From the NCBI RefSeq assembly GCF_048771995.1, contig NC_133043.1, positions 11,151,001 through 11,215,000 of the forward strand: DNA of 64,000 nt, read 5' to 3'. The notes under the pieces were generated by a model. It saw nothing but the letters and a program-made list of their open reading frames with translations, was not told where the DNA came from and searched no databases. Positions within the stretch are counted from its first letter, which is position 1; each line of letters opens with the position of its first letter. Of the stretch, positions 45,185 to 64,000 are shown piece after piece. A program made the position numbers and the translations under genes. The DNA is from Taeniopygia guttata (taxonomy: Eukaryota > Chordata > Aves > Passeriformes > Estrildidae).

Positions 45185-48100
45185 TCATTCATCAGCATCA
45201 TCAAACTGGCCCTTCTCAACTGTTCTAACTCGTGGTGGAAAAACAAAGCAAGGTGCGTGGTGACAGCCTGGGTTGTAAAACCAATCCTCCTTCCATACAT
45301 ACGAGCCAAAAAGATTATTTTCCTCAAAGCTTCCACAGGAGAGATCGTCAGCATCTAAAGAAGATAAAATAAAAGGTTTAAACCATGGGACATACTCAGG
45401 AAAGTAGTGGAAATAGTGTAGCAGGTTATTATGGAGGTCTATGGCATCTTCCCGTTCACTATTTTAATTTGATCTGACAGCACTCATGAATTAGACCTTA
45501 AAAAAAGCCAAACAGAAAACTGAATTTGGCAATGTCTTCATTTTAAGGAAGGTTCATGCCACACAAACAAAACAGTTTTTCAGAAAGCTCACTGATATTC
45601 CTGGGACTTAGAACGTCTGGCACCAGCTCTTACAAGACATACAATTTTTTCCCATCTTCCCTGAGAATAAAAGACTCATTAAACTATCAATTTTATTTGC
45701 CTTCCCCCTTCCTGCTGCTTTTATAACACCATCCCAATGAGGAGTCCTCCAAACACTCTAAGAACTGGGTTGCTGGACAGAATGGGAGGGTGGGGTCCTG
45801 TAAAAGTTGTCTTAGAACAGTATTTCCACTAGGCTAGAATTAAGACTAATGGGCCTGTGTTTAACCAATCTAGCACAAAAACAGGGCAAAGTATTTTAAC
45901 AGAAGCATAAAGATTTGCCAGCAGACACTGAGCAAAGAAAAAGCCCAGAGCATGGAAGAGCAGAGGACCCAACACAATATCCCACATGTCAGCCTTCCAG
46001 GAGCACTGCCAAACAAGTCATCACAGCAAGAACTTAAGACACTTAAAAAGCCAAGAAGCGACCAACCAAGCACATTTTTGTATTTGTAGCAGGTAACAAC
46101 TCAGATGCTCGTATTCAGTATCCTTCAGAAGGACTTGAATCCAATAAACACAGCTGCCTTAGTTTATGAGGATTTAAAGAGCTACAGGTGGGATGAGCAA
46201 GTTAAATAAAGGGGAAAAAGAAGAACAGTTCCAGTACAAAATTCAAAACATTCCATAAATTTGACCATATAAGTGATTAAAATGAAAGCTCAGAATAGAA
46301 GGAAAAACTCCAAAAAGGGAACAATCTTTTTCTCAGATTACCCACTGTGAAAAACCAATACGATATTTCCATTTTAAAATCAGAGTGGTTTTACAAAGAG
46401 GCTGAAAATCTTTCTCACTTTCTTCCATTACCAAACAATGGTAATGGAAATAGATGGAATTTAAATGGAAATAAATGGAATTTAAATACAAGAGTTTATT
46501 TTAATTATGAGATTAAAATGAACATATTTCCTAAGCAAAGAAAATTATCTTAATTACAAAAAGATACACATTAATGAGAAGAAAAAATGGCAATGGTGCT
46601 ATTCTGCATCAACAAAGACACAGCAGGTTACCAGCCACTGCTGGCTAAACCCCATCCATCCATTCTGTGCTAAGAACCAGCCTGGCCAATGAAGACTGTT
46701 CAATATGTGAATCACCATAAAAACAAGTTACAAACTGGAGGAATAATTCAATTCTAAAGGTGTGAGTGACTCTTATTCGTTGCACTTTTGTCCATGGGAC
46801 TGATCATGTGCACAACCACTCAGGAGGATCAAGCTTCAACAAAACCAAAGTCAAACAAACAAACAAACAAAAAACCACCAAAAAAATATCAAAAAAACTA
46901 CAGTAAACACAACAAACCATACTCAGAGACTGGGCACCGTTCCAAATAACTCCGTGCTCTAGAGAGACATTATAACAAACAGTCTTGAATTTTCTTGAAG
47001 AATTTTAATACAAAAAAAAGTTAGTTCCTGCATGCCATGTACCTTTCTCTTCTGCTTCAGAGTAACAAAGATACACCACGGAAAACTTGCTTCACCAGAA
47101 AAACTCAACACAAACATGGAATTCACCTCCTTACCATGCCACTCCCTAGGAGTTCAATTGCTCAAGCAAGAGTCTCATGTGAACTGCACAACACCACCTT
47201 TAAATCCTGTATTTGACAACAAAATTGTGCATTACACATACAGGAGTTCAACATAACAAGAAATTGCTTCCCAAAATAGAACATGGAGTTACTTAAACAC
47301 ATTCTCCTGCAAAGCACCTACCTCCAACTATCCAAAACTCAAATGAAGCACAAGTAAACGTGTACTCACCATAAGGACCACATGTAGACTCCTCCAATTC
47401 TTTATCCCAGTCCTCCACCTCATGCTCAGATGCATCTTGCTGCCCTGAAGACTCGGGCACATTAGAAACTTCACTATCCCACACATCCAGGTCAGCATAT
47501 ATATTGTACCAGCCCTCATCAGTGGAGCCACTGACATCATCTTCATTGGGGGCGGTAGAAGTGGATTCACTTTCTTCAGACTTGCCATCAGGAACATTTG
47601 GAATATTCTGCAGAAAACATTCTAAAACCAGCAGAAAGCACTAACAGATACACTCAGAAGTTAAACAAGAACAATTAAGTGTTCCAAGAGGTACAAAAAT
47701 GCACTTTGTGACTACTACTCTTATTGTAATACACACAGTTTCCCAGATATGTAATATCACTACAGAGCTGTTTCACATTTCAGATGCTTGGAAAGAGTGG
47801 ACATAGCCTTGCACCACAACACCAGCACAAATCAGGATTTTCCACAGACTCTTGTTGGAAAATAACTCTGTAAACTAGGGCAAAGGACACAGCAGTCTTG
47901 TTTCATCACATTCACCTGTAGGTATTTAAAAAAAAAAGTTCTGGTTTAAAAAAAATCATATTGATTAATTACTCATGTACCAAATAGCTACATGGAAATA
48001 ATTTAGTACGGTCAGTAAAGAGCATTTCCCATGCATCACCAAAAGGTTTTCAGTAAATTTCTCAAGTAGTGCACAAGTTTCAATATTCACGACCTCCTTT

Positions 48101-48197: not shown

Positions 48198-48539
48198 CAC
48201 CTATGAGACATTTTTAAAGAATGCAGTAGCAGCTCTGATTAGTCAGCAAACTGCTACCCCATGTGCTCCCGAGCGTCTCCATTTGTTCCCTTGATGAATC
48301 ACAGGTTTAACAACAAACAAACTGGCTTTCACTTCAGAAGGTGAATCTGCAGAGCTACAGCTAATTCTGCTGCTGCCATCGCTCACCCTTAACATCAGCC
48401 AACACAACAGCCCGTCTCCTCACGCACAACCCCGACCCACATCGTGCCCCTCTGGGAGAGCAGCACCGGGTGAAAGCACCAGAGGTAATTAACACACAAG
48501 GAGTGGAGAAAGCTCCAACACTGAACCAGCCGCTCTGTG

Positions 48540-49015
48540 GGGCCCGCGGGCCGAGCCTCCAACAGCCCTGAGGGGCTGGACGCAGATGTGTGGAGAGCGG
48601 GAGGAAACCCTCAGCTGCTGTGCGGGGCACGGAGGGAAGGGGACAGCGAGCTCTCCTCACACTCCCAGCGCGACAAGGAGGAGCCGGCGGCGGGTGCCGG
48701 GGCCCGCCGGCGGCCAAGGGCAGGGCGCGGATTCCGGACGAGCCCTCACGGCGGCCCCGCCGCCCCCTCACACTCCCCGGGACCCCCGAACCTTCGGAGC
48801 TGGGCTCGCGGCCCGGCCCCAGGGCTCCATCGGCCGCCCCTGTGCAGCGCCAGCCGGGCGGGCCCGCGGCCGTGCCCCAGGGACGCGGTGCGGCACCGGG
48901 AGGAGGCTGCAGGGACGGCGCGACCGCTTCCGCCCACGGCAGGCCGTGCCTGCAACGCCGCCCAGAGCGCCCTGGCTGCGGAGCTTCGGAATCACAGAAA
49001 CGAATTCAGATGGAA
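48540..49015 (-). promoter_or_regulatory. CpG island, probable COPRS promoter
   Basis: A G+C-rich stretch with dense CpG, densest at 48,660-48,990, unlike the AT-rich DNA on both sides. It lies 350-800 bp upstream of the COPRS start codon, so it probably holds the transcription start and a non-coding first exon. A TCATAG acceptor immediately before the start codon (around 48,201) would accept such an exon. No TATA box is seen. Open frames through the island (for example 48,590-49,354 plus) are expected in GC-rich DNA and are not called as genes. Confidence 0.7.
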
Positions 49016-49075
49016 AGTCCTCCGAGATCGTCGAGTGCAACCATGACCCAACACCGCCATGTAACCGAGACACAT
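48990..49075 (-). mobile_element. CR1-type LINE, 3' tail fragment
   Basis: The plus strand here reads AATCACAGAA..., then GAGATCGTCGAGTGCAACC and ACCCAACACCGCCATG, which is the reverse complement of the well-known CR1 3' end (GGTTGGACTNGATGATCTT ... TGATTCT). Only the tail remains, and several CpG changes suggest an old copy. It lies at the upstream edge of the COPRS CpG island, between COPRS and the UTP6 exons. CR1 is the dominant LINE of birds and other sauropsids, which is one reason for calling the host a bird. Confidence 0.65.
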
Positions 49076-49422
49076 ACAGGCGTAAGAGCTCTAAGAAGGC
49101 ACCTTTTTACTCCTGAAGTTGTAAATAAAGTATCGATGTCTCTCATGGCTGGGTGGAGTTTCTCCCGTGTTGAAAAATACCCATTTCCTTCCGGCCTCGT
49201 GGTAGCAGCATGCTCAGAACATGAAGAGACTGGAAGCACCTTGGCTGAACAGCTGTGGCAGGCTTCAAGCACGTGTCCTACTCTTAATGGCACAGAAGAA
49301 ATAAGCTCCACTCTGCATGACAGCAAGCACAAGAGCAGAACAGATACCTTTTAAAATGTGTGGGAATTAAACAGGCAGCAGTGAATGAATAAATAAATAC
49401 TAAAAACCAGAATCCCCCTCAC
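49076..49422. other. gap between UTP6 exons and COPRS promoter, no exon found
   Basis: The terminal UTP6 exon is expected in this interval by comparison with human. All three minus-strand frames were read and none shows the conserved end (human DLWMDYMKEEL, then HPLGRPENCG and MHQTGHL). A frame across 49,006-49,332 is open but unlike UTP6. Part may be more diverged CR1 or other repeat sequence. Confidence 0.5.
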
Positions 49423-50863: not shown

Positions 50864-51480
50864 CTACAAGGTCAGCAAACAATCAAATAGCAGAAATACA
50901 GTGACTGACTTACAGAGACAGCAACACAGCCATCAGGTCCTGTACTACCTGCCATAAAAAATACCCTTTGGACACAGCTCTTGGAAAGACAACTTTGAAC
51001 TGCACACTGAAATCACTTCTCATTTCCTTCCTCACTTACAGGATAAACCATCCAGTGCAGCAGGACCGCGCCAAACCCCGGTCCCCAAAGGGGACAGCTA
51101 GCCAGAGGGGTCCCGGGGGGTGGAGGAGGGATGGGGGACAGCCGCAACTGACCCCCGAAAGCTGCACTCTACCATTAGTCTCATGTTGAGTACAACTTAG
51201 TAGTCACTGAGGAATAATTATAGAAGTTAACAGCAAATTACCCAACTTATCTAGATATGCTGCCTAAAAACAAAGTTTTATTTCTTACCAGTTTTCTTAA
51301 CCTTTTGCTCCAAGTAGATGCAGCAAAAAAGAAAGCACTATCATTTCCCTGAAGAGTTTTCTTCTATATCCAGCCCTTTATTCCCCTTGAATTCAAATCA
51401 GAGGAGCCAAACAGCCAGAGCTGCTCTGAAGGCTTTTATACCTGGTGGGGTTTGCCCCCTCCCTTTTCCTGGGTGTCATG
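50864..51480. other. junction zone between UTP6 and the plus-strand gene
   Basis: To the left is single-copy UTP6; to the right are tandem and subtelomere-like sequences. A short G-rich stretch lies at 51,090-51,150. I looked on the minus strand for the UTP6 exon that should come before 50,863 and did not find it. A minus-strand stretch ending in ...AAAACTG|GTAAGA near 51,287 resembles a splice donor but its peptide does not match UTP6. Confidence 0.45.
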
Positions 51481-51489
51481 GGAATGAGA

Positions 51490-51545
51490 GGCGGGCCCAA
51501 TCAGGGGTATATTAACCCCAGGCTTTGCCAAGGGGCTTCATTCCC
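51490..51545 (+). promoter_or_regulatory. CCAAT/TATA core promoter of the plus-strand cassette gene
   Basis: GCCCAATCAG (CCAAT at 497-501 of the 51-kb block) is followed by a TATA-like TATATTAA at 51,508-51,515, inside the small palindrome GGGGTATATTAACCCC. About 28 bp downstream GCTTCATTCC offers an initiator near 51,538-51,542. A splice donor GGGGTAAGAG then follows with GT at 51,564-51,565. The combination of CCAAT, TATA, initiator and donor in proper order supports a regulated RNA polymerase II promoter reading to the right. No CpG island is present here. Confidence 0.6.
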
Positions 51546-51906
51546 TCTCTGGGATCAGCTGGGGTAAGAGCTCTCCTCTCATTTTGGTGAAGAGGCTCTT
51601 TCAGCTTAGCTTGTTCTCTTCAGGTGCTTTTGGGCTTCTAATGCAACAGAGGCTTTGAAGATACTGTGAAGAAAACTGTGCTGAACACAGGGAGTATTTA
51701 ATTTCATGATTTGGAGTTGTGCATTCAGGGGTGGTGAAGTGCTTTTGTAATCTCTGATTTTTTTTTTTTTTTTTTTTTTTTTTAGGAGGAGTGCAACTTC
51801 CTGTACTTCCAGGTTGTGTCGAGTACAACATTTTTACAGCAGATTCATCATGTCACAGAAGGGATCTGCCCTGTGTCAAAGATGATGTCTGAGATTGAGG
51901 CTTCAG
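51538..51906 (+). other. 5' exons of the cassette gene (non-coding exon 1 and start exon 2)
   Basis: Exon 1 would run from about 51,538 to 51,563. Exon 2 is 51,786-51,906, with a 26-T tract ending in TTTAG before it and GCTTCAG|GTGAGT after it, both strong. Exon 2 contains an ATG at 51,850 that opens a frame of only 11 codons, then tandem ATGs at 51,882 and 51,885 starting MMSEIEAS and leaving one base of the next codon. The later tandem start is preferred because its end phase fits the following cassette exons; the first ATG would be a short upstream frame. Confidence 0.55.
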
Positions 51907-54900
51907 GTGAGTTGAAGATTGTGACTAGGACTGGGAGAGTGAGCAGGGTACCGAGTTAAGAGTTATCATGGTGGGGGTTTGCAGGCAGTAGGGTGAGAAA
52001 TGGTGTCTGTTTGCAAGGCTTTTCACAAGCATAGGGGAGGCATCCATGTGTCATACAGTGCACAAGCTCATCCACTGAACTCACAGAAATGCCCTGTACC
52101 TTTGCCTCTCTAAACCAGGTGCCACTCATAATAATAGCCAAACCTTAGACTAGGGATGGAGCTGGAGACTTGAGCACCCAAGCACACTCAGGAGACAATA
52201 AGTATCTGACTTGCTGGGATTTGGCCTACATAACACTAAACTCAACCATTGATTTTCCTGTTCTTTATTCTAGCTGACTAAGAGGCGGACAGGTGATCTC
52301 CTCTGAGGCAGACTCATTTCAGGTCCAACGTGGATTTGCATTTCCAGTCATCCAAAAGATAAGTCAGGGCCATGGCCTGAGGATGGGAACAGTGGCCTCC
52401 TTCTGCACCAATGGGGATTTGCATCCCCAGATATGTGCAAGATGAGTTAAGGGCTACAACCTACAGAGGGGAAGGAAGAGAGGTACCAGGTTGGGGCTCC
52501 CCCGGAGGGGATTTTGAGTCAGGTTTGGAGATGGGGATGTCCAAAAAGCGTCCTCTTAGGCCAGCTAAATGCAAAGTGTCTTTTTTGATCTCAGTGCTGA
52601 GGTGCGCAGGGCAGAGCAGTTCCGGTGTGCGTTCTGTCACTTGTCTCTGGTGCACTCTGTGTTCTTTGGGTCTCTCGGTCCTTTCTTCTCATCAAAAGCT
52701 CTCTCCCCCTGTTCTGTCTCCTGGTTTGTCATGTCCTGTCCTGTGTCACGGGTGTCTGCACATATTTGTACCGGACCTGCTCTGCCCTGCTGCATAGCCT
52801 GTAACAGCAAAAGTCCCAGGGACTTGAAATTGGTAATGCAGGGTGTAGTTGGGCTCAGATTTTATTAGGAGATTGACATAACATGTTTGGTACTGTTAAG
52901 TTGTCCTGCAGCGGTTTGACATTAGTCCTAACTTCCTTTCAGATGCAGACATTTCAAGTCAGTGGGGGAGGGCCCCAGTCCTTGGTGAGGAACTTCCCAT
53001 GAGCAGGTCAGTCATTGCATTTACAGGGGAAGTCTAAATGGTGACTCTGTTTCAGCACTGTTCTGTGCCTTTATTTTTAGGAGGTCCAGTCAGATAACAG
53101 CAGTCAAAGCCCAGTGTGCCAGGTGAGCAGTGGACAGAAGCTGTTGTTCTTGCTAAGGTTTCAGTTTTTGGTGCAGCTGTAAGCATCCATTCTTGTTTTT
53201 GTGCTTTAGGGAATCCACTGGGAGTATGCCAAGCCCCTGTCACCAGCTGGCTGATGGACTGGGTTTCCTGCACTTATGAGCCCTCTGGAAGTATTACAGG
53301 ACCCTGTGATGAAGCCTTCCGATTTTGCATTTCAAGGTCCCATCCTGGTAGCCCAGAGCAGTGGCCAAGGAGTTGTGGTGAGTCGGGGAGGTAGGCAGGG
53401 GGAGTGAGAGTCCTCTTGAGTTTCAGCATTGTGTCCCCTTAACCTAGGTGTACCCAGCAATGATGGTGTCAGAATCCAGCCACACCCGGAGCGTGCAGGC
53501 CAAGAACCTGGGCATTCTGAGGAGGATGGTGAGTAGCAAAATTATCAGGTTTTGGCCAATGTGCTGTTAAGGCTGTGCACCGATGTTTGGTTTTCTTTCT
53601 CTTGGCAGGCCAAGAGGTGACAGCTGGAACTTACCAGACAGGCAGATGGCCTTCTTCTGCAGCCAACAGGGATTTGCATCCCTAGATATGTGCAAGATAA
53701 GTCAAGGGCTACAACCCACAGAGAGGATGGAAGAGAGGTGCCAGGTTGGGACTCCCCAGGAGGGGTTTTGGAATCAGTTTTAGAGATGAGGATGTTGAAG
53801 AAGAGTCTCCTAAGCCCACCTAAATGCAAAGTGTCTGTTTTGATCTCAGTGCTGAGGTGCGCAGGGCAGAGCAGTTCCGGTGTATGTTCTGTCACTTGTC
53901 TCTGGTGCACTCTGTTCTTTGGGTCTCTTGGTCCTTTCTTCTCATCAAAAGCTCTCTCCCCCTGTTCTGTCTCCTGGTTTGTCATGTCCTGTCCTGTGTC
54001 ACGGGTGTCTGCACATATTTGTACCGGAGCTGCTCTGCCCTGCTGCATAGCCTGTAACAGCAAAAGTCCCAGGGACTTGAAATTGGTAATGCAGGGTGTA
54101 GTTGGGCTCAGATTTTATTAGGAGATTGACATAACATGTTTGGTACTGTTAAGTTGTCCTGCAGCAGTTTGACATTAGTCCTAACTTCCTTTCAGATGCA
54201 GACATTTCAAGTCAGTGGGGGAGGGCCCCAGTCCTTGGTGAGGAACTTCCCATGAGCAGGTCAGTCATTGCATTTACAGGGGAAGTCTAAATGGTGACTC
54301 TGTTTCAGCACTGTTCTGTGCCTTTATTTTTAGCAGGTCCAGACAGATAGCAGCAGTCAAAGCCCAGTGTGCCAGGTGAGCAGTGGACAGAAGCTGTTGT
54401 TCTTGCTAAGGTTTCAGTTTTTGGTGCAGCTGTAAGCATCCATCCTCATTTTTGTGCTTTAGGGAATCGGCTCGGAGTACGCATACCTCTGTTACCACCT
54501 GGCTGATGGACCAGTTTTCATCCACTTGTGATCTCGCTGGAAGTATTACAGGACCCTGTGACGGAGCCTTCCAATTTTGCATTTCAAGGTCTCATCTGGG
54601 TAGTCCCGAGGAATGGCTGAGGAATTGCAGTGAGTCGGGGAGGTAGGGAAGGGGAGTGAGAGTCCACTTGAGTTACAGCAATGCCATGTCACCTTGTCTC
54701 CATTTAACCTAGGTGTACCCTGCAATGATGGCATCAGAATCCAAGCAGACCTGAAGCATGCAGGTCAAGAACCCGGGCATTCTGAGGAGAATGGTGAGTA
54801 GCAGAACTATCATGTTTTGTCCGATGTGCTGTTAAGACTGTGCACTGATGTTTGGTTTTCTTCCTGTTGGCAGACCAAGAGGTGACAGCTGGAACTTACC

Positions 54901-57415
54901 AGACAGGCATACGGCGTCCTTTTGCAGCCAACAGGGATTTGCGTCCCCAGAATGCATGCAAGATAAGTTGAGGGTTACGACCCACAGAGGGGATGGAAGT
55001 GGGGTGGTGGGTTGGGACTTTCTAGAAGGGGTTTTTGAGTCTGTTTTAGAGATGGGGATGTCCAAGAAGCGTCTCCTATAGTCCACCTAAAGGGAAAGTG
55101 TTTCTTTTGATCTCAGTGCTGAGGTGCACAGGGCAGAGCAGTTCCGGTGTGTGTCCTGTCACTTGTGTCTGGTGCACTCTGTGTTTGGGTCTCTTGTTCC
55201 TTGCAGGCATTCTTGTCAAAAGCTCTCTCTCTCCCTGTTATGTCCTGTTGTGTGTCACGGGTGTCTGCAGATATTTGTCCCGCAGCTGCTCTGCCCTGCT
55301 GCGTAGCCTGTAATAGCACAAGTCCTGGGGCCTTGAAATTTGTAATGCAGGGTGTAGCTGGGCTCCAGAATGTATTAAGAGATTGACATAACATGTCTGG
55401 TGCCGTTGAATTGTCTTGCAGCTATTTGACACTAATTCTAACAACCTTTCTGTTGCAGACAGTTGAAATCTGTGGCAGAGGGCCCCAGTCCTGGGTGACG
55501 GTGTTGCCATGAGCAGGTCAGTCATTGTTTGCATTTGCAGGGGAAGTTTAAATGGTGGCTATGTTACAGCAGTGTTCTTTGCCTTTATTTCTAGGAGGTC
55601 CAGGCAGATAGCAGCAGTGAAGGCCCAGTGTGCCAGGTGAGCAGTGGACAGGAGCAGCTGTTCTTGCTAAGGTTTCAGTTTTTGGTGCAGCTGTAAGCAT
55701 TCTTTATCATTCTTGTGCTTTAGGGAGTCAACTCGGAGTATGCATACCTCTGTCACCACCTGGCTGATGGACCAGGTTTCATGCACTTGTGATCTCGCTG
55801 GAAGTATTACAGGACCCTGTGATGGAGCCTTACAATTTTGCATTTCAAGGTCTCATCTGGGTAGTCCCGAGGAATGGCCGAGGAATTGCAGTGAGTCAGG
55901 GAGGTAGGGAGGAGGAGTGAGAGTCCACTCATGTTTCAGCAATACCATATTGCCTTGTCTCCACTTAACCTAGGTGTACCCTGCAATGACGGTGTCAGAA
56001 TCCAAGCTCGCCCAAAGTGTGCAGGCCCAGAACCCGGTCATTCTGAGGAGGATGGTGAGTAGGAGAATTATCAGGTTTTGTCTGATGTGCTGTTAAGACT
56101 GTGCACTGATGTTTGGTTTTCTCTTGGCAGACCAAGAGGTGACAGCTGGAACTTACCAGACCGGCAGACGGCCTTCTTCTGCACCCAGCAGGGATTTGCA
56201 ACCCCAGTTGCATGCCAGATGAGTTGAGAGTTATGCCCAAGGAGGGGAGGAAAGCGGGGTGCTGGGCTGGGACTTTCTAGAAGGGATTTTTGAGTCTGTT
56301 TTAGAGATGGGGATGTCCAAGAAGTGTCCCCTTAGGCCACCTAATGGGAAAGTGTCCCTTTTGATCACAGTGCTGAGGTGCGCAGGGCAGAGCAGTTCTG
56401 GTGTGTGTCCTGTCACTTGTCTCTGGTTTTCTCTGTGTTCTTTGGGTCTCTCGGTCCTTGCACACATTTTTCTCGTTGAAATCTCTCTCCCCCTGTCGTG
56501 TCCCCTTGTTTGTCTCCTCCTGGGTCCTGTGTCACAGGTGTCTGCACATATTTGTCCTGGCGCTGCTCTGCCCTGCTTCATAGCCTGGTGTAATTGCACC
56601 AGTCCCGTAGATTTGCGATTTGGCATGGGGCATGTCGTTGCGTTCTAAGTAGTATTCCCAGTGTCGCACCAGATGTTTTGACCTGTTAAGTTTTCCTGCA
56701 GCTGTTTGAATTTTCTCCCAACTTTCTTTCAGATGCAGATGGATTAACTCTGTGGCAGAGTGCCCCTTGTGGTCAGGGGGTTTCTGTGAGAAGGTCAGTC
56801 ATTGTTTGTGTTTGCAGGGGAAGCCTACATGGTCACTCTCTGTTACAGCATTTTTCTTTGTCTTTAGTTTTAGGAAGTCCAGGTGGCTAGGAGCAGTCAA
56901 GGCCCAGTGTGTCAGGTGAGCAGTGGACAGAAGCTGTTGTTCTGGCTCTTGTCTCAATTTCTGGTGCAAGTCTAAGCATCCACTCTGGGTTACTTTGTTT
57001 TATTGTAGGCAGTCCTTTTGCAAGATGTCTCTGGTCCGGATGTCTGAAGCCAGGTGGGTGCAAGCTTAAGGTCTGTGTGGGTGTACTTTTCGAGTCAGGG
57101 GGTGGTGTTTTCACAGTATCTCAGTGTGGGTTTGGTTTTTTTGCTTTGTTTTTTTGCAGATGCTGTCACTGCCCTAGGTGTGTGAAGGAACAGAGGCGAG
57201 CGGGTGAGTTGGCATTTAGGCATGGTCACTCATAGGTGACCGTTATGCAGCAGCATGTTAAGCGTGTACCTTTTCATTTTGCAGGTGTCCTCCAGGCAGC
57301 CTGTGGAGTCAAATCGAGTTTTCTGGTGAGCTGGGGCAGCGGTGTGTCGGAGTTCTGGGGATTCTTCCTTTGGTGGGCACTAATTGCATTTTCCGTTTTG
57401 TCTTAGGTACCCTGA
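51882..57415 (+). CDS. unrecognised multi-exon gene with tandemly repeated exon cassettes
   Basis: Not a family I recognise. After exon 2 come small exons with GT/AG borders and compatible phases. Repeated exons: A (52,943-53,006; 54,196-54,259; 56,733-56,793), B (53,081-53,122; 54,334-54,375; 55,595-55,636; 56,874-56,915), C (53,210-53,377; 54,463-54,629; 55,724-55,890) and D (53,448-53,528; 54,713-54,793; 55,974-56,054). Unique 3' exons are 57,009-57,053, 57,160-57,203, 57,285-57,325 and 57,407 onward, where GTA CCC TGA ends the frame. The shortest chain (exon 2, A4, B4, unique exons) gives about 88 residues and is open throughout. Adding copy 2 A-B-C-D stays in frame. Exon C is cysteine-rich (SGSITGPCDGA, FCISRSH); the end has CCHCPRC. 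No signal peptide or membrane segment is seen. Expression is unproven; it could be a decaying duplicate or a long non-coding RNA. Confidence 0.45.
52274..53608 (+). repeat. cassette copy 1 of the ~1.26-kb tandem array
   Basis: The first unit starts raggedly: 52,274-52,440 only partly resembles the unit start in later copies, but the anchor GGGATTTGCAT at 52,414 is shared. Exons A1 52,943-53,006, B1 53,081-53,122, C1 53,210-53,377 and D1 53,448-53,528 follow. C1 is 168 nt against 167 in copies 2 and 3; the extra base changes its phase, so C1 joined to B1 meets a stop. From about 52,570 to 53,200 it is nearly identical to copy 2, pointing to recent duplication or gene conversion. Confidence 0.85.
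53609..54873 (+). repeat. cassette copy 2 of the ~1.26-kb tandem array
   Basis: Anchor GGGATTTGCAT at 53,669, 1,255 bp after that of copy 1. A2 54,196-54,259, B2 54,334-54,375, C2 54,463-54,629 and D2 54,713-54,793 all have usable borders and one continuous phase, so this is the best-kept full cassette, adding about 118 residues. The unit opens with a further exon-like block E (acceptor TTGGCAG before 53,609, frame QEVTAGTYQTG..., stop at 53,683-53,685). Confidence 0.85.
54874..56130 (+). repeat. cassette copy 3 of the ~1.26-kb tandem array
   Basis: Anchor GGGATTTGC at 54,934, 1,265 bp after copy 2. Block E is at 54,874 (stop 54,969-54,971). The position matching exon A is damaged: the CTTTCAG acceptor of the other copies reads CTTTCTG at about 55,445-55,451, and no open phase crosses the exon. 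B3 55,595-55,636, C3 55,724-55,890 and D3 55,974-56,054 are intact. C3 shows the cysteine set best, with TCDLAG, TGPCDGA, QFCIS and RNCS. Confidence 0.85.
56131..57000 (+). repeat. partial cassette copy 4 joined to unique 3' exons
   Basis: Block E at 56,131 (stop 56,220-56,222), anchor GGGATTTGCA at 56,191 (1,257 bp after copy 3). A4 56,733-56,793 (ADGLTLWQSAPCGQG) and B4 56,874-56,915 (RWLGAVKAQCV) are intact, but resemblance ends at about 56,960, where exon C should come. Instead four new exons follow, so the array merges into a different 3' end. Confidence 0.8.
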
Positions 57416-57915
57416 GGAGGTGCGTAGCTGAAGTTTGGAACTGGCAGCACTGAAGCGGATGTAGAGAACATCTCACTGTCCACATCCAACTGACATTGAA
57501 TTATGTCTGGTTGTCTTGCAAAAGCTAAGTGCTGGGACCAGTTGGTGGGAGATGGGGGAAAAACCTTTACTATCACAGGACGCAATTTGATATTAACTTA
57601 GAGGAGAGGCCCATAGTGGAACGGGCCCCTCGGGGGCAAAGGGAGAGGGTTTCTCCTCAGCCTCACCAGAGTCTTTGCCAGCCAGGGCAGTTCCGATCCG
57701 TCTCCGCATTCCCGTGAGGTTCGCATCAGCGGTCTTCTACGACTCTGGATGTCATCATGGATATTTTCACTCGAGGAGCCTGCCTGCATGTCTGGAGCTA
57801 TAGCCATGGTCGCCCCGTAGTCATTGCTTCTTTCTCTGGACTTACTGATCTTCTTAGGCTTCCTCTTAAGTGCTTTGGCACTAACATCTTGAGAGGAGTT
57901 ACCTTTCATCATCAT
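57403..57915 (-). other. unidentified minus-strand open frames, possibly a viral-element relic
   Basis: Two open stretches (57,598-57,915 and 57,403-57,585) lie antisense to the 3' end of the cassette gene. The first is strongly basic (KALKRKPKKISKSRERS), the second proline-rich. The composition is somewhat like the leader of a betaretrovirus-type envelope, but I cannot confirm this; a broken fossil or chance are both possible. No partner region (gag, pol) is seen. Confidence 0.2.
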
Positions 57916-58370
57916 GTGGTATTGCCCTAGTTCTTTCTGTCCTTTGGCATCATCAGCCCATGGCTCATCTTGGGCTAGGAATCTTGGGGTCCATAAGGTG
58001 GAACTGCCAGGCAGTTTCCACTTGTGTCAGTGTCATGGTGTCTGTGTCCGGTGTCATGTTTTCTGTGTCCACTGATTTCTGTGTCGTCGGCCTTTGTTAC
58101 ATCTCCATGCTTTAGCAGCATCATTCTGTGCTGTATTTGCTGTATTTTACTCGTGTACCTTCTTGGATATCACTTATTCTGGCATCTTTACATATTTACT
58201 TTTTGGGACAGGAAGATGTACACAAAATGTTCTCATCCATCTTTCTTCTCACCTTTGGTAGCGCCTTCTCTTCCCGTGCCATTCTCTTGGACTTCTATAT
58301 GGAGCATATTAGACGCTCATCACGTGGCCGCTGTAATTCTGTAGCTTCCGCCTCCTCAAAGGGTATAGGG
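57916..58370. other. no gene recognised; TGTGTC-rich stretch
   Basis: Around 58,020-58,090 the words TGTCAGTGTC, TGTCTGTGTCC and CTGTGTC recur, giving weak internal repetition. Plus-strand open frames at 58,024-58,344 and 58,128-58,631 run through low-complexity sequence and have no family features. Confidence 0.45.
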
Positions 58371-58379
58371 TTAAGAATT

Positions 58380-58640
58380 AATCTTCTGGAGAGTTATGTC
58401 AGCTCCTCACTTATATTGTATCTCTGTTGGCTTATATTATATGTGCTTATGTTGTGCCTACCTATGTTGGCTTATAATGTATGTATAAGCCAATATACTT
58501 ACATTGGATGTACTTATGTTGTATGTACCTCTGTCAGTTTATATTGTAAGTACCTATACTGTATGTACCTATGTTGGCTTATATTATGTGCACTCATATT
58601 GTATGTACCTACCTTGCCTTATGTTGTATGAGCCTCTGTT
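58380..58640. repeat. TATG/TACC-rich minisatellite
   Basis: The words TTATATTGTATGTACCT, TATGTTGGCTTATA and TGTACCTATGTTG recur about every 20-45 bp with variation. Part is inverted (TATAAGCCAATATACTTAC near 58,481-58,500), so it can also fold. This is non-coding. Confidence 0.75.
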
Positions 58641-59640
58641 GTGCCAATTACGATCGGAGCTGCCCTGCCCCAGCATGTAGTGACGCCTAGGTAGAGCAGT
58701 TGTAAAACTCTGCAGTTCATCTGTCTTCTATGGGGTTTTGGGTACAACACTGATGGGCCCAGAGTGGGAATAGCTCCTAGCTGTCAGATAGTCAGTCGTT
58801 GACTGCCTCCCATTGTCTTGTAGGTCGCCGGGTCCCTACAGAATTTCCTGGAATCTACCATTTGATGTTGAGGAGCGGCAGTCAGAAGATGTGTCAAAGC
58901 ATATTCTTCAGCGTAGTGTTTCACATAAGGGTGGCATTCAGCATGTCAGCAGAAGCATGTGTGAGTGTGATTGTCTGTGTCTGTCTGTGAGAAGTTTGTG
59001 TGTGCTCCTGTCTGCAGGTCTGAGCGTATGCTGACCGGTTTTAACCCTGTGTGTATGGCCTTTGCCTTTCAGGTTTTTCAACTCATTTTTGAATTTAGAA
59101 TAAAAAATCCCCAGCTGGGGTTTTTATCCCCCCCACCCCCTGGGCTGGGTTGTTTCCTCTGTCCTGGCCGGTCTGTGAGGCGACGGTCATCACTAAGGTT
59201 TTGCCACAGACCATCCCCAGACCAGGGTTTTTGTCAAGGAGGATTTTATGGAGCCTCCGGGGAGCCACGTTCCTGAGGAATAATGATTTCTGGGGTGTAA
59301 TGGAGCAGTTGAGATGAGAGCGATAGTGAGTTTGTCTGTAACGTGAAGGAGGTGCTCATGGTGGATGAGTGTTGTTTTGTGTGTGTAATCTTTGTTTTGT
59401 GTTTCCTCTCACAATAAAACAAAATGTAATTAAAATAGAAAAAAGGATCATATTGTGTTGATATGTGTTTGGTTTCTATTGCCCTGTGCTGTTCTGTATT
59501 TGCATTTGCTGCTGCTCTGTATCTATGCATGTCTATGGATTGTATCTGTACTTGCATTTGTATCTGTTGTTTCCATGTGTTTTGCTGAAGTGTAAATAAA
59601 AAAATTCATTCAGTAAAGTTGAATCAACCCTAGTAATGAT
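58641..59640 (+). other. possible downstream exons and poly(A) signals, unassigned
   Basis: At 58,660-58,720 the sequence GAGCTGCCCTGCCCCAGCAT resembles a part of the 1.26-kb unit (GAGCTGCTCTGCCCTGCTGCA), suggesting a decayed further piece of the array. At 58,824 an exon-like stretch follows TGTCTTGTAG. AATAAA occurs at 59,413-59,418 and 59,595-59,600 on the plus strand; since no AATAAA was found just after the stop at 57,415, one of these may end the cassette-gene transcript. All of this is tentative. Confidence 0.3.
59595..59600 (+). terminator. candidate poly(A) signal AATAAA
   Basis: AATAAA followed by an A run and TTCATTCAGTAAAG. It is one of two plus-strand hexamers downstream of the cassette gene (the other at 59,413-59,418). 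Assignment to that transcript is an inference. Confidence 0.3.
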
Positions 59641-59689
59641 GCCCCTGCTCCCTCACCTTCCAGCTTTGGCTCCTGTCTTTCTTTGGTGT

Positions 59690-60115
59690 GGTTCAGTGAT
59701 TTTTTTTCACTGTATTTCTTCCTTTGCTTCTCATCTTACTTTTCTATTTCTGACTTCATTTCTGTGTGTCCCTAACTCAGTGTTTCTATTTCTAACTCTC
59801 TCTGCTTCTCTATTTCCCACTATTTCTTTTTTTTTTCTTTCTTTCTCTGTTTTCAACTATTTATTTTTATCTCTATAGTTTATACTTTACTCTTTCTTTT
59901 TCTCTCTAGCTTTAACTCTTTTTTCCTCTTTTTTACTCTCACTTTCTTTTTCACTCTAACCCTGCTAATTTTTCACTCTTTTTGTTTTCACTGTTTGCCA
60001 CTGTTTTCATAGTTCTTTTTTTTCTGTCTCTCTTTTTCTCTCCAACTTTTTTTAACCCTTTGTTTCTCTCTATTTCTACCTTTATTTCTAACTCTGCTTT
60101 CCTTTCTAGCTTAAA
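59690..60115. repeat. pyrimidine-rich low-complexity tract
   Basis: About 420 bp of almost pure C/T on the plus strand with TTTCT, CTATTTC and TAACTC words, ending in an A run at 60,113-60,124. Such tracts are common near chromosome ends; no coding content. Confidence 0.8.
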
Positions 60116-60124
60116 AAAAAAAAA

Positions 60125-60245
60125 CAGCAGTAAAAACTTTCAGGCTCCCTGGGAGTAGAAAAAAAAAAAAAAAAAAGCCAAACCTTTAAATAATTATCTA
60201 AAGAAAATTATTTAATCTCTGGGAGCCTGAAATTTTCTACTGCTG
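60125..60245. repeat. long inverted repeat (25-bp arms)
   Basis: Left arm 60,125-60,149 begins CAGCAGTA and ends CAGGCTCCC; right arm 60,221-60,245 begins GGGAGCCTG and ends TACTGCTG. The arms match at 23 of 25 positions when one is reverse-complemented, around a 71-bp A/T-rich spacer with an 18-A run. It could be a small terminal-inverted-repeat element or a hairpin; I see no convincing target duplication. Confidence 0.8.
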
Positions 60246-60401
60246 CACTAGACATATAGTTTTTCTTCTTTTTCCTAATAGATATAGGGCCCCTAATTAG
60301 CGATCCAGCTGGCAGGTAGCAGTAGCAACACACAGCAACCAGTACTCCCATCAACCCCACCAGACGAATAATGATTACGACCAAGAGTTCATCATGTTGA
60401 A

Positions 60402-61000
60402 ACATAAATTTTAAGGGATTTAGAGATTTTAGAAGAGCTAAGATTTTAGTTAAAGACAAGCCTTACTAGAGTTAATTAAAATAAATGAGTAGGCCTTGAT
60501 AAAGTTAAGAGTGAGTTAGTTAACTAGTAATTGATTGCCTGTCAGCACAATGTTTAGTTAGCTGGGTTTATAATGAAGAATACAGAAACTGATAAAGTGC
60601 TTTCAGGAGCATAAGACAACTGAAGACAAGGAATGGGAGTTCTACCAAGAGTTCATTTGTCATACTTGCACTGAAACGGTAGAAAGGCCAGAACGAGGAA
60701 GACATCATTTACTTCCACATTTTGTGACTCATCCCCATGAAAGGGACCACCGACCCATTTCAGGGAACAAACCTCATGCTTAATAGCATTTGAAATGATT
60801 AGCATATGAAGCAAGGAATAGGATGTACCAAAATGAATAGGTATTTGTATTTTCGGTATTCAGTACTTGTATGGATAAAAGGGCTCTTTAATCACTTGGA
60901 AAGTGCGGTGTGTATTTGGGAACTATCCCACATGCTGCTGGGCATCGAATAAACATACACTGTCTAACTTCAAACTGTTAGAGAGTTTTTGTCTGTCACA
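60402..61000 (+). mobile_element. solo-LTR-like element, probably endogenous retrovirus (class II type)
   Basis: A roughly 600-bp AT-rich block with promoter and poly(A) features in LTR order: a TATA-like GATAAAAGG at 60,874-60,882, AATAAA at 60,949-60,954, then a short T/G-rich part ending CTGTCACA at 61,000. The same 6 bp, GTTGAA, lies at 60,396-60,401 and 61,001-61,006, the duplication length usual for class II elements. The left end does not read TG, so the exact border is uncertain. No primer-binding site or internal genes follow, so it looks solo and fossil. Age cannot be judged from one LTR. Confidence 0.5.
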
Positions 61001-61079
61001 GTTGAATATCGGTAGTAGATCAATATCCATATTTTTATTGTAATAAATCAACATCACAATGATAGAATTGCACAAACAG

Positions 61080-61440
61080 GCGCTCCACCTCCACAGCCGG
61101 CAGCGCGCCCACCCCTCGGTCTCGCAGCGCCACCTGCCGTTGCAATTCGCGCACTGCACCCACGCCTCCCTCTGGCCCGCCCCTGCGTCGCGTCACCGCG
61201 TGACGTCACCGCGTCGGTGCCCCGACCCCTCCCCTCGCACCGCCCCCAGCGCCTCAGAAAAGCCCCCAAGAATTAGCCGCCCCGACAGCCGCCTGTCCGA
61301 AATTCCGACACCAATCCCGCACTCCAAAAACAATCTCGCGAGACGTCCTCCGGTGCGGGTGCACCGGAACAGCACTACGGCACGCAGGGCGTGCGGAGGG
61401 CACACAAAAAACCGCCAAAAACCGCCAAAATCAACCCCGA
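61080..61440. promoter_or_regulatory. CpG-rich block with CRE-type sites
   Basis: An abrupt rise in G+C and CpG begins at about 61,080. A full cAMP-response element TGACGTCA lies at 61,201-61,208 within a set of CGTCACCGCG words, and ACCGCCAAAA is repeated near 61,410-61,430. It leads directly into the 36-bp array and probably forms one island with it. Open frames on both strands here are expected from base composition and are not called. Confidence 0.6.
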
Positions 61441-61820
61441 CCCGAAAGTCGCCATCTTTGCCCGATCACGTGATTTTTCTGGGCGCGGCCACGTTTGATC
61501 AGTCACGTGATGCAGAGGGCGCCGCCATTTAAAACCTCATATCATGACTAACTGGGCGCCGCCATATTTGTCCCATCACGTGGTGTAGTAGACGCCGCCA
61601 TATTTGTTCCCGCCACGTGATGCAATTTGCCGCCATCTTTGCAACGTCACGTGATGCCGTGGGCGCTGCCATCTTTACCCGGTGATGTACTACCCTGAGC
61701 GCCGCCATCTTTGCCCCTTACGTCATGTCGTGTGCGCCGCCATCTTTGCCCCGCCACGTCATGCCGCGGGCGCCGCCATCTTTGCCCCGCCACGTCATGC
61801 CGCGGGCGCCGCCATTTTCT
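61441..61820 (+). repeat. 36-bp tandem array of YY1-type and E-box/CRE-type sites
   Basis: The 13-mer GCCGCCATCTTTG or close variants starts at 61,521, 61,558, 61,594, 61,629, 61,665, 61,701, 61,736, 61,772 and 61,808, a spacing of 35-37 bp, with further copies at 61,450 (full core) and about 61,485 (decayed). Between them lie TCACGTGA (61,466; 61,503; 61,647), TCACGTGG (61,576), CCACGTGA (61,613) and, toward the right, ACGTCA forms (61,719; 61,754; 61,790). GCCGCCATNTT is the YY1 core; CACGTG is the USF/MITF/MAX E-box; ACGTCA is a CREB/ATF half-site. The right-hand units are nearly identical, so the array has expanded recently. Confidence 0.9.
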
Positions 61821-61885
61821 AGGGTAATTCTTATTTTTAAGTTTAATTTTCGAGGTATTATTATTATTATTAGATTTATTTGAGG

Positions 61886-61956
61886 TTAGGGTTAGGTTAG
61901 GATTAGGGTTAGGGTTTGCGTTTCGGTTAGGATTTAGGGTTCAGTTTAGGGTAAGG
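61886..61956 (+). repeat. degenerate interstitial telomeric repeats (TTAGGG)
   Basis: Exact TTAGGG occurs at 61,886, 61,903, 61,909, 61,934 and 61,946, mixed with TTAGG, GTTAGGA and GGGTAAGG variants. A (TTA)n run lies just before (61,856-61,872). The G-rich strand runs 5'->3' to the right, so the chromosome end would lie to the right if this is a true subtelomere. It is too short and too varied to be a live telomere. Confidence 0.85.
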
Positions 61957-62140
61957 CTTTGAGTCAGGGGCAGCTTGGGTCTGGGACACATCCTTCGACA
62001 TTCGGATTTTTTGCAGGCAGCTGCCACCTCAGGGTCACAGGCCCCTCAGCACGAACAGCGGCCCTTTTCCCCGGGTTTCTTATGTCAGTTTGCAGCAGGT
62101 GTTTGGCATTGCCTCAGCAAACAGAATTTTATTCTGCTGC
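61957..62140. other. subtelomeric unique-looking segment, no gene recognised
   Basis: A short segment of mixed composition between the TTAGGG repeats and the C-rich tract. Plus-strand open frames starting at 61,959 and 61,975 continue into C-rich low-complexity sequence and are not supported as genes. Confidence 0.5.
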
Positions 62141-62149
62141 AGCTTTTGT

Positions 62150-62340
62150 CTGTCAGATATGTGATGCCCCCTGCTACCCTCACCTTCTCCCTCACCCCTG
62201 TTCTTCTCTGTCCCTGTCTCCCCCCCCTCACCCCTATCTGTACTTCCAGCCCCCCCCATCCTACTCTCTCTTCGCCCTTCACCCCTCTCCATCCTGCCCC
62301 ATCCCTCACTCCCCCCACCACCCACCTGTGACTCCTAGCA
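62150..62340. repeat. C-rich pyrimidine tract
   Basis: Plus strand rich in CCCCTC, CCTCACCC and CCCCCC words. The strand bias flips to G-rich soon after 62,340. The minus strand of this tract has many G runs and could form G-quadruplexes. Confidence 0.75.
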
Positions 62341-62454
62341 GCACCACATGGGAGCCCAAACTTGTGGGGATAGTGCAGCCCTCACAGCAGGACAACACCA
62401 AAATAAAACAGGCAGGGATGACATCTGTGGGCTGCACCGTGTCACAAACAGACC

Positions 62455-62830
62455 TGGGGCTGAGGGCAGGGGGCTGGAGGGTGGCACAGAGGGTGGGGGC
62501 AGCTGAGAGGCAGAAGGTGTCTGTAGGAGTAAAAAGGGGGGCACAGAGATGCTGAGAGGCTGCGGTGGGGGGCTGGAGGGTGGCACAGAGGGTGGGGGCA
62601 GCTGAGAGGCACAGGGGGGCACAGAGATGCTGACAGACTGCGGTGGGGATCTGGAGGGTGACACAAGGAGGCTGAGGGGCAGAAGGGGTCTGTAGGAGTA
62701 AAAAGGGGGGCTCCAGGGTGGCACAGAGACACTGAGAGGTTGCAGTGGGGGAATGGAGGGTGACACAAGGAGGTTGAGAGGCAGGGGGTGCCTTGAGGAC
62801 AAAGTGGGGGGTACCTGAGGGTGACAGGTG
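62455..62830. repeat. ~100-bp G-rich minisatellite, about 4 units
   Basis: The word CTGGAGGGTGGCACAGAGGG appears at about 62,473 and again 100 bp later at about 62,573; related words (GGAGGGTGACACAAGGAGG) follow at about 62,652 and 62,754. Each unit also carries GCTGAGAGGCAG-type and GTCTGTAGGAGT-type words. Minus-strand proline/serine-rich open frames here are a by-product of the repeat. Confidence 0.8.
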
Positions 62831-63270
62831 AACCAGCCCTCACACCACCCTTAACCTCACCCTAAAAACCACCCCTCCCTGGGTGGGGAGTGCACAGTGG
62901 AGGTTAGGGGGCCAAGGGACAGTGTCGGGGGCTTGGGGTGTCACACAGACATTGCGGGCTGAGGGGCAAATAGGGAGGACTTGACAAGTGGAGAGCTGAC
63001 ACTGAGGGTTAAGGGTACAAAGGACAGGACATAGGGTACCAGGAAGGCTTAGGGTACAGAAGCAGCCCTCACCCCAGCCCTAAGCTCACCCCAATCAGCA
63101 TCCCTAGAACACCAGTTTTCCCCAACAGCAGCTACAGGCAGTGACCCTAATGCTGGGACAGCCCCGGAACCCCCCCAGCAGCTGCAGGCAGTGACTTTAA
63201 TTAAAAGGTAGGGATGATGTTTGCTGGCTAGAGATCGACTGGTAGAGCCTGGTGACTGAGCACTTTTTTT
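62831..63270. other. subtelomeric G/C-rich sequence with short repeats
   Basis: Contains CCCTAA-like words (CACCCTAAAAACC near 62,860), AGGGTACAG-type words and two copies of CAGCAGCTRCAGGCAGTGAC (about 63,126 and 63,176). No gene recognised. Confidence 0.5.
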
Positions 63271-63277
63271 AGTGGTT

Positions 63278-63312
63278 TGTTTTGGTTTGGTTTGGTTTGG
63301 TTTGGTTTGGTT
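63278..63312. repeat. (TTTGG)n microsatellite
   Basis: About six uninterrupted TTTGG units, followed by a T run. Confidence 0.9.
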
Positions 63313-63860
63313 TTTTTTAGTGTTTTTAAAGGATATTTGAGGGTTTTCTCACAGGAGCTTTTTAGGAACTTTCTGGGAACATTTAGGATGCCTTTAGGAC
63401 TTTTTCAGGGCTTTAAAAAGATTTTTTTAAGGTATTTTAAGGGCTTTCTTAGTACTAATTAGAATTTTAAGTGGGTTTTTTGGGGGGGGGCTGTTCTTGG
63501 GGTTTTTTTAGGACTATTTAAAATTGTTTAGGGCTTTTTTAGGACTATTGGGGGTATGTGGAGGGCTCCTAGGACTCGGGTCTTTTTAGGTTTCTTGAGG
63601 GAAGTTTAATGGATTTTAAGGTCTTATCAGTGTGTTTTAAGGATTTTGGGGCTGCTTTTAGAGCTCTTTTAAGAATATTTAGCCTTTTTTTAAAGGTTCT
63701 TTGGGGATTTTTAGGGGTGTTTTAGGGGTTTTTTTAAGTAGGGTATTTTTATTGTATTTTAAGGGTATTCTGAGGCTATTTTTATGTTTTTGTGGGGGTT
63801 TTAAGACATTTTGAAGATAAGGTTTTTTTGGGGTGTTTTTATGGGTTTTTAGGGTCTTTT
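63313..63860. repeat. T/G-rich degenerate repeat with TTTTTAGG words
   Basis: TTTTTAGG, TTTAGGGCTTTT, TTTTAGGGGT and GGATTTTTAGGGG words recur every 15-40 bp on the plus strand for about 550 bp. It looks like low-complexity sequence possibly derived from telomere-type repeats with extra T. There are many G runs, and no coding content. Confidence 0.65.
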
Positions 63861-64000
63861 CATGGCATAGAGGCTGAAGGGCAGCTTGAGGGGCACTGTG
63901 TGGGCTTGAGGGTGACAGAGGCTGGGAGCTGAAGGAAGAACAGGGGGAGGGGACAGTGGGTAACACAGAGAGATGCTGAGGGGGGCAGGGGCAGCTGGAG
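63861..64000. repeat. return of the G-rich minisatellite at window end
   Basis: GAGGCTGAAGGGCAGCTTGAG, GGGTGACAGAGG and ACAGAGAGATGCTGAGG words match the 62.4-62.8 kb minisatellite, so the same family continues past the window edge. Confidence 0.65.

What the first reader, a model, noticed from the sequence alone, without database searches (positions are those of the whole stretch)
61441..61820. Regular 36-bp array alternating YY1-type and CACGTG/ACGTCA sites
About eleven units with near-constant 35-37 bp spacing each pair GCCGCCATCTTTG with a CACGTG or ACGTCA site. 36 bp is about 3.5 helical turns, so neighbouring sites of one kind alternate faces. Such a dense, ordered array is not a usual gene promoter; it may nucleate a transcription or chromatin hub. 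Site drift is directional: CACGTG on the left, ACGTCA on the right.
Basis: partly seen in the sequence, partly recalled or inferred. Interest (0 to 1): 0.85.

Follow-up and report, generated by a model that had tools for sequence, protein, structure and literature searches.

The report
Songbird chromosome-end CpG-island array
Near many chromosome ends of this bird genome a short CpG-rich island carries a regular row of paired docking sites for gene-control proteins, always pointing toward the telomere, and it is probably a promoter for non-coding RNA made at chromosome ends.

Summary
The array is real: 11 YY1-type cores spaced 35-37 bp at about 61,450-61,818. It is not private to this window. 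A whole-genome search finds the element at 28 places; 25 lie within 150 kb of a contig end (24 ends), and these 25 all have the same orientation toward the end. The usual partner site is TCACGTGAT, starting 16-17 bp after the YY1 core; the ACGTCA variant and its left-to-right drift belong to one subfamily (5 arrays).

The array is the telomere-side half of a ~760-bp CpG island (61,060-61,820) in CpG-poor flanks, with a CTCF-like site on the other side and degenerate TTAGGG repeats just beyond it. Two diverged copies inside chromosomes are still CpG islands with most boxes intact. Units of one array conserve the two boxes much more than the spacers.

I read it as an autonomous, factor-bound CpG-island promoter/boundary of subtelomeric non-coding RNA. 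It resembles a human TERRA promoter but is not filed as one: at the one end measured it lies ~17.5 kb from the telomere tract, at least 19 similar ends show no copy, and transcription could not be tested. A recombination-prone CpG island is the main rival.

The parts
61060..61440 (.). Non-repeated half of the CpG island (CTCF-like site, CRE-like palindrome, doubled ACCGCCAAAA at about 61410-61431)
   Evidence: CpG o/e mean 1.16, GC 0.68 over 23 copies; 1.19-1.28 in 300-bp steps here; homologous at all 28 places (the C23 1.55-Mb copy over a part of it)
61126..61140 (-). CTCF-like site (matrix recalled from memory)
   Evidence: 12.0 bits here, just under the 95th percentile (12.4) of maxima in 500 shuffles of the island, so not significant alone; a hit at this place in 11 of 12 other copies scored (12.0-18.3 bits), none above 9 bits in C10L 26-kb copy
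61200..61209 (.). CRE-like palindrome GTGACGTCAC
   Evidence: read from the sequence; GTGACGTCA also in C2L and C23 1.55-Mb copy
61450..61818 (+). 36/37-bp array, 11 YY1-type cores (GCCATNTTT) with TCACGTGAT-type partner sites
61884..61956 (+). Degenerate TTAGGG-like stretch just telomere-side of the array
   Evidence: 3-5 TTAGGG per 350 bp telomere-side of the array in 12 of 12 end loci checked, against 0.09 by chance
60160..64000 (.). Subtelomeric module Y that carries the island (runs to the contig end)
   Evidence: aligned at about 90% with C2L and other ends
51052..60150 (.). Subtelomeric module X with a 1.25-kb tandem repeat; also lies between array and telomere at C2L

Best explanation
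An autonomous, factor-bound CpG-island regulatory element of this bird's subtelomeres. A CTCF-like site on the centromere side and a tandem array of YY1 sites paired with CACGTG sites (bHLH-zip factors of USF, TFE/MITF, MAX or MGA type) keep a ~760-bp island free of methylation in the germline. The island most likely works as a promoter, possibly in both directions, of subtelomeric non-coding RNA, and as a boundary between chromosome arm and subtelomere. Shown here: copy number, position, orientation, CpG retention, conservation of both boxes and of their spacing. Inferred: absence of germline methylation, which proteins bind, that it is transcribed, and in which direction.
For: 28 genomic places, 25 of them within 150 kb of a contig end and all 25 in one orientation relative to that end. 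CpG o/e 1.16/1.30 against 0.34/0.14 in flanks (23 copies); 0.93-1.49 in each of 28 arrays. Two internal copies whose islands are 85% and 75% identical to this one are still CpG-rich within CpG-poor flanks. Within-array unit comparison in 7 arrays (66 units): mean column identity 0.80 in the E-box against 0.45 and 0.42 in spacer and tail; with the same best-of-two-offset freedom at every position the peak at the E-box (0.80) stays, against minima of 0.52 (spacer) and 0.32 (tail). E-box starts 16 or 17 bp after GCCAT in 152 of 159 cases. CGCCATCTT, shared with the units here, is the core of YY1 sites that act as orientation-dependent activators in the Peg3 CpG island (PMC2615030, passages).
Against: No RNA, methylation or binding data were available. 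Copies at different ends are close relatives, so counts over copies are not independent. The YY1 core was the alignment anchor, so its inner positions are conserved by construction. The non-repeated half of the island does not evolve clearly more slowly than the flanks once a misaligned row is removed (p 0.017 and 0.57 against the two flanks; neither significant after dropping C15L). A mutation strand signal that might show transcription was not robust.
Confidence: 0.55

Rival explanations
1. A TERRA promoter in the strict sense: RNA polymerase II starts in the island and runs telomere-ward into TTAGGG, as from human 61-29-37 islands, with an unrelated set of motifs.
For: Chromosome-end CpG island with a tandem array, a CTCF-like site, and TTAGGG-like sequence directly beyond the array at 12 of 12 end loci checked; 12 TTAGGG in the 350 bp beyond it in the old C20 copy, so the array may once have abutted a telomere. 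In human, 37 of 46 ends have 61-29-37 promoters, with CTCF at the 61-bp and CAGE tags at the 37-bp repeats (PMC12242772, passages).
Against: At C2L the telomere tract ends at about 7.3 kb and the array lies at about 24.8 kb. C2L has other CpG-rich sequence nearer the telomere (9.8-11 and 12.6-13 kb, o/e 0.8-1.0). 19 of 42 ends with module X show no array. The C23 internal copy has no TTAGGG beyond its array. The YY1 sites point so that the orientation usual in promoters (AAGATGGCGGC on the sense strand; recalled) would send RNA away from the telomere. Where CTCF lies in the human element is told differently by the two papers seen (61-bp repeat; about 300 bp downstream of the 29-bp repeats, PMC6600276), so 'same order' is loose.
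Confidence: 0.2
2. A recombination-prone CpG island: in PRDM9-less birds unmethylated CpG islands attract meiotic breaks, so the element is spread and homogenised between ends by recombination, and biased gene conversion keeps it CpG-rich; RNA is incidental.
For: [quoted passage not shown] Arrays at different ends are similar, and unit number varies.
Against: Conversion acts on all positions of a unit alike and does not explain why the E-box is kept and spacer and tail are not, nor the fixed offset between boxes. The two readings are compatible: a factor-bound island could be both.
Confidence: 0.12
3. The promoter of a multi-copy protein gene in the subtelomere, such as the 142-codon frame at 57,601-58,026 (minus) of module X.
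For: The frame is open in the window and has 60 matches in the genome.
Against: 52 of the 60 matched rows hold an in-frame stop; no homologue at E <= 0.001 among 18 candidates; no Pfam family; at C2L a copy of the frame lies on the telomere side of the array.
Confidence: 0.03
4. An inert subtelomeric satellite without function.
For: It lies in a duplicated subtelomeric module, and many end copies are recent relatives (C2L against C3L differ by 0.6-1.9% per partition).
Against: CpG retention in internal copies and box-specific conservation are not expected of an inert methylated repeat.
Confidence: 0.05

Closest known systems
Human TERRA promoters (subtelomeric 61-29-37 bp repeat CpG islands; PMC12242772 and PMC6600276, passages)
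   Same: CpG island at many chromosome ends, built partly of short tandem repeats with factor sites, CTCF involved, near TTAGGG repeats
   Different: Other unit (36 bp) and other motifs (YY1 and CACGTG here; NRF1, CTCF and others in human); about 17.5 kb from the telomere tract at C2L; no transcript shown
YY1-site cluster in the Peg3 CpG island (PMC2615030, passages)
   Same: Several CGCCATCTT-type YY1 sites in one CpG island; there six sites act as an orientation-dependent activator
   Different: Single imprinted bidirectional gene promoter; no 36-bp pairing with E-boxes described in the passages seen, not subtelomeric
CTCF-binding macrosatellites DXZ4 and D4Z4 (search listings and abstract starts only; a YY1 link is recalled)
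   Same: Tandem arrays described as CTCF-bound; D4Z4 is subtelomeric and called an insulator
   Different: Kilobase units in long arrays (3.3 kb for D4Z4); here 36-bp units in about 370 bp
PO41, 41-bp subtelomeric repeat of chicken and quail (PMC4301066, passages)
   Same: Avian subtelomeric tandem repeat with a short unit; known to be transcribed in oocytes and somatic cells
   Different: 41-bp unit, present as repeat arrays rather than as part of a single-copy CpG island; sequences were not compared here

Membership tests
Human-type TERRA promoter | CpG island with short tandem repeats at many chromosome ends | tested here: met
   24 ends; CpG o/e 1.16 and 1.30
Human-type TERRA promoter | CTCF site in the promoter | tested here: inconclusive
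   motif only, with a recalled matrix; 11 of 12 other copies have a hit at the place, the window's own hit is within shuffle range
Human-type TERRA promoter | lies next to the telomere repeat tract | tested here: not met
   about 17.5 kb away at C2L, the one array-bearing end whose tract was read; only degenerate TTAGGG is adjacent
Human-type TERRA promoter | drives telomere-ward RNA containing UUAGGG | not testable with these tools
   no RNA data
Human-type TERRA promoter | sequence homology to the 61-29-37 repeats | not tested
   no human sequence was compared
YY1-cluster CpG island (Peg3 type) | several YY1 sites inside one CpG island | tested here: met
   11 cores in this array, 4-13 in the other arrays at unit spacing
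YY1-cluster CpG island (Peg3 type) | promoter of a protein gene | tested here: inconclusive
   only one candidate frame was followed (module X): mostly interrupted, no homologue or Pfam family; spliced genes were not predicted
Inert methylated satellite | CpG depletion and even divergence along the unit | tested here: not met
PO41 subtelomeric repeat | 41-bp unit | tested here: not met
   unit is 36 or 37 bp in 172 of 187 spacings kept, of 196 in all

The most novel reading that the evidence does not exclude
Songbirds evolved, independently of mammals, a TERRA-type chromosome-end promoter: CTCF site, CpG island, a 36-bp array of paired YY1 and E-box sites, then TTAGGG. The array keeps itself unmethylated in the germline wherever it lands, drives RNA from chromosome ends in germ cells, and, because birds lack PRDM9, also serves as an entry point for recombination at chromosome ends.
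Probability: 0.18. Interest if true: 0.82.

Novelty: new variant of a known kind. Interest (0 to 1): 0.62.

Why it matters
My paper searches listed no described promoter of telomeric or subtelomeric RNA in birds (openly licensed papers only, mostly seen as listings and abstract starts), although an avian subtelomeric repeat is known to be transcribed (PMC4301066, passages). This element is a sequence-defined candidate at 24 contig ends of one genome. It makes three questions directly testable: where avian subtelomeric transcription starts, how parts of chromosome ends escape germline methylation, and whether terminal crossovers in PRDM9-less birds use such islands. If it is transcribed toward the telomere it would be a convergent counterpart of the human TERRA promoter built from other factors.

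Tried and rejected
Gene promoter for the module-X frame: rejected because 52 of 60 matched rows have stops and no homologue or Pfam family was found. Known structured RNA: no Rfam family at gathering score in the window. Slower evolution of the non-repeated island: looked strong at first, but the row C29L gave 177 of 308 changes in the telomere-side flank and is probably misaligned; without it the effect is not robust, so I do not use it. Mutation strand asymmetry as a pointer to transcription direction: the telomere-side signal vanished and only a weak centromere-side one (p 0.03-0.04, several tests made) was left; not used. Four other 13-mer clusters or sites in the genome (L008, L023, L024, L026) were inspected and are not this element; the remaining single sites were not inspected. 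Rows dropped: C37 from the partition statistics because its CTCF-like anchor did not match my pattern; C6L, C9R and the two internal copies are not because they were fetched later; 9 of 196 core spacings (24, 48, 73 bp) lie outside 30-40 bp and were left out of the unit set. The rough retention test on internal copies (9 of 11 CACGTG partners intact, p 0.009-0.017) used one identity of 75-77% for both, whereas the C20 copy's island is 85% identical, so it overstates the case.

Full report
What is there. The window is the right end of contig C20 (contig length 11,215,000) of a 1.14-Gb genome in 41 contigs. The contig sizes fit a songbird karyotype (recalled). The array at 61,450-61,818 has 11 YY1-type cores spaced 35-37 bp. 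Five units carry CACGTG, three CACGTCAT or TACGTCAT, two neither, and the last core is a half unit (read). The exact 13-mer of the finding occurs 99 times in the genome against 4 for the reversed control.

It is a chromosome-end element. A whole-genome search with 61,050-61,850 gave 29 rows at 28 places (two rows are one array on C15; the tool calls such counts lower bounds). Twenty-two places, at 21 ends, lie within 60 kb of a contig end: C1R, C2L, C2R, C3L, C3R, C4L, C4R, C5L, C5R, C6L, C7R, C8R, C9R, C10L (two), C11R, C12R, C14L, C15L, C16L, C19R and C20R. Three more (C23L, C25L, C29L) lie 114-150 kb in. C37 (780 kb), C20 (4.27 Mb) and C23 (1.55 Mb) are internal and more diverged, 73-81% (contig lengths). 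All 25 end copies read GCCGCCATCTTTG toward the end. At C2L the telomere tract runs to about 7.3 kb and the array lies at about 24.8 kb. The C19R and C20R copies lie 0.4 and 2.2 kb from contig ends that are cut short, with no telomere tract in the sequence held.

It is not at every end. A frame in the neighbouring module X has 60 matches and marks about 42 contig ends (the length of C31 was not fetched); 23 of these 42 have the array, 19 do not, and C19R has the array without an X match. Of 20 contig starts probed, 15 read N over the 200 bases asked for and five held telomere repeats (C7, C21, C24, C27, C40); none of those five ends has an array. Withheld or missing sequence may hide copies.

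Anatomy. The subtelomere is built of at least two modules. X (window about 51.05-60.15 kb) includes a 1.25-kb tandem repeat. Y (from 60.16 kb) carries the island. In the window X lies on the centromere side of Y; at C2L a copy of X lies between Y and the telomere. The island has a non-repeated half with a CTCF-like site on the centromere-ward strand and a CRE-like palindrome, then the array, then about 65 bp further a degenerate TTAGGG stretch.

Evidence for function. First, CpG: observed/expected averages 1.16 (island) and 1.30 (array) against 0.34 and 0.14 in flanks over 23 copies, and is 0.93-1.49 in each of the 28 arrays read. The two internal copies, with islands 85% and 75% identical to this one, are still CpG islands in CpG-poor surroundings. 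I infer absence of germline methylation independent of location; biased gene conversion could contribute. Second, box conservation: between units of one array (7 arrays, 66 units) the E-box averages 0.80 identity against 0.45 in the spacer and 0.42 in the tail; with equal offset freedom at every position the E-box peak stays at 0.80 and the minima are 0.52 (spacer) and 0.32 (tail). The YY1 core was the anchor, so the E-box is the independent evidence. Third, spacing: the E-box starts 16 or 17 bp after GCCAT in 152 of 159 cases, and units are 36 or 37 bp in 172 of 187 spacings kept, of 196 in all; many arrays are close relatives, so these counts are not independent. Fourth, and weakly, the internal copies keep 9 of 11 CACGTG partners.

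What did not hold. Slower evolution of the non-repeated island and a transcription strand signal dissolved once a misaligned row and a fast lineage were removed. The window's own CTCF-like site (12.0 bits) is inside the range of shuffles (95th percentile 12.4); its support is that 11 of 12 other copies scored have a hit at that place, up to 18.3 bits, while the C10L 26-kb copy has none above 9 bits. The CACGTG-to-ACGTCA drift is a subfamily trait of 5 arrays.

How it most likely works. YY1, CACGTG-binding bHLH-zip factors and CTCF would occupy the island in germ cells, keep it unmethylated and start non-coding transcription, with CTCF also marking a boundary between arm and subtelomere. Only the DNA side of this is shown. 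A TERRA promoter in the strict sense is attractive because the human element also joins a CpG island, tandem repeats, CTCF and TTAGGG (passages) and because TTAGGG-like sequence directly follows the array. Distance to the telomere at C2L, other CpG-rich sequence nearer to it, ends without the array, and the recalled polarity of YY1 promoters argue for caution. Recombination at CpG islands in PRDM9-less birds (PMC12047795, passages) is a rival and also a compatible further role.

Known or new. Ten literature searches listed nothing that describes this element; only openly licensed papers are held, most were seen only as listings and abstract starts, and passages were read in five. It works like, but is not filed as, a human-type TERRA promoter, because adjacency to the telomere tract was tested and not met at the one end where it could be read.

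Noticed in passing
window about 60115-60250; also C2L at about 7.9-8.1 kb (L011): An imperfect palindrome with CTACTGCTG/CAGCAGTAG ends and TCCC(T)GGGA arms sits between modules X and Y and again next to the telomere tract of C2L (74.6% over 193 bp); it looks like a foldback element at module joints.
   Followed up: partly
window 52394-56990: A 1.25-kb tandem repeat, four or so copies, part of subtelomeric module X and found at other ends, on either side of the array.
   Followed up: partly
L060 (C2:10001-20000), about 1-3000, and L011 end: Nearer the C2L telomere, a ~359-bp tandem repeat with CpG o/e 0.75-1.0 and, telomere-ward, a CTTTCAG-like acceptor followed by AATAAA; a further CpG-rich stretch at 12.6-13 kb. 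Copies of this module farther from the end are CpG-poor.
   Followed up: partly
L025 (C37:776001-786000), about 500-2520: About ten repeats at ~191-bp steps, each holding 109 bp similar to window 61967-62075, beside the diverged C37 copy of the array.
   Followed up: no
window 48400-49100 and 47293-47640 (minus): A separate CpG island (o/e up to 0.94) beside an acidic 115-codon minus-strand frame without a Pfam match; looks like the 5' part of an ordinary gene outside the subtelomeric modules.
   Followed up: no
starts of L011, L040, L042, L046: Telomere tracts at contig starts are interrupted by a poly-T run within the first 40 bases or so; probably a sequencing or assembly artefact.
   Followed up: no
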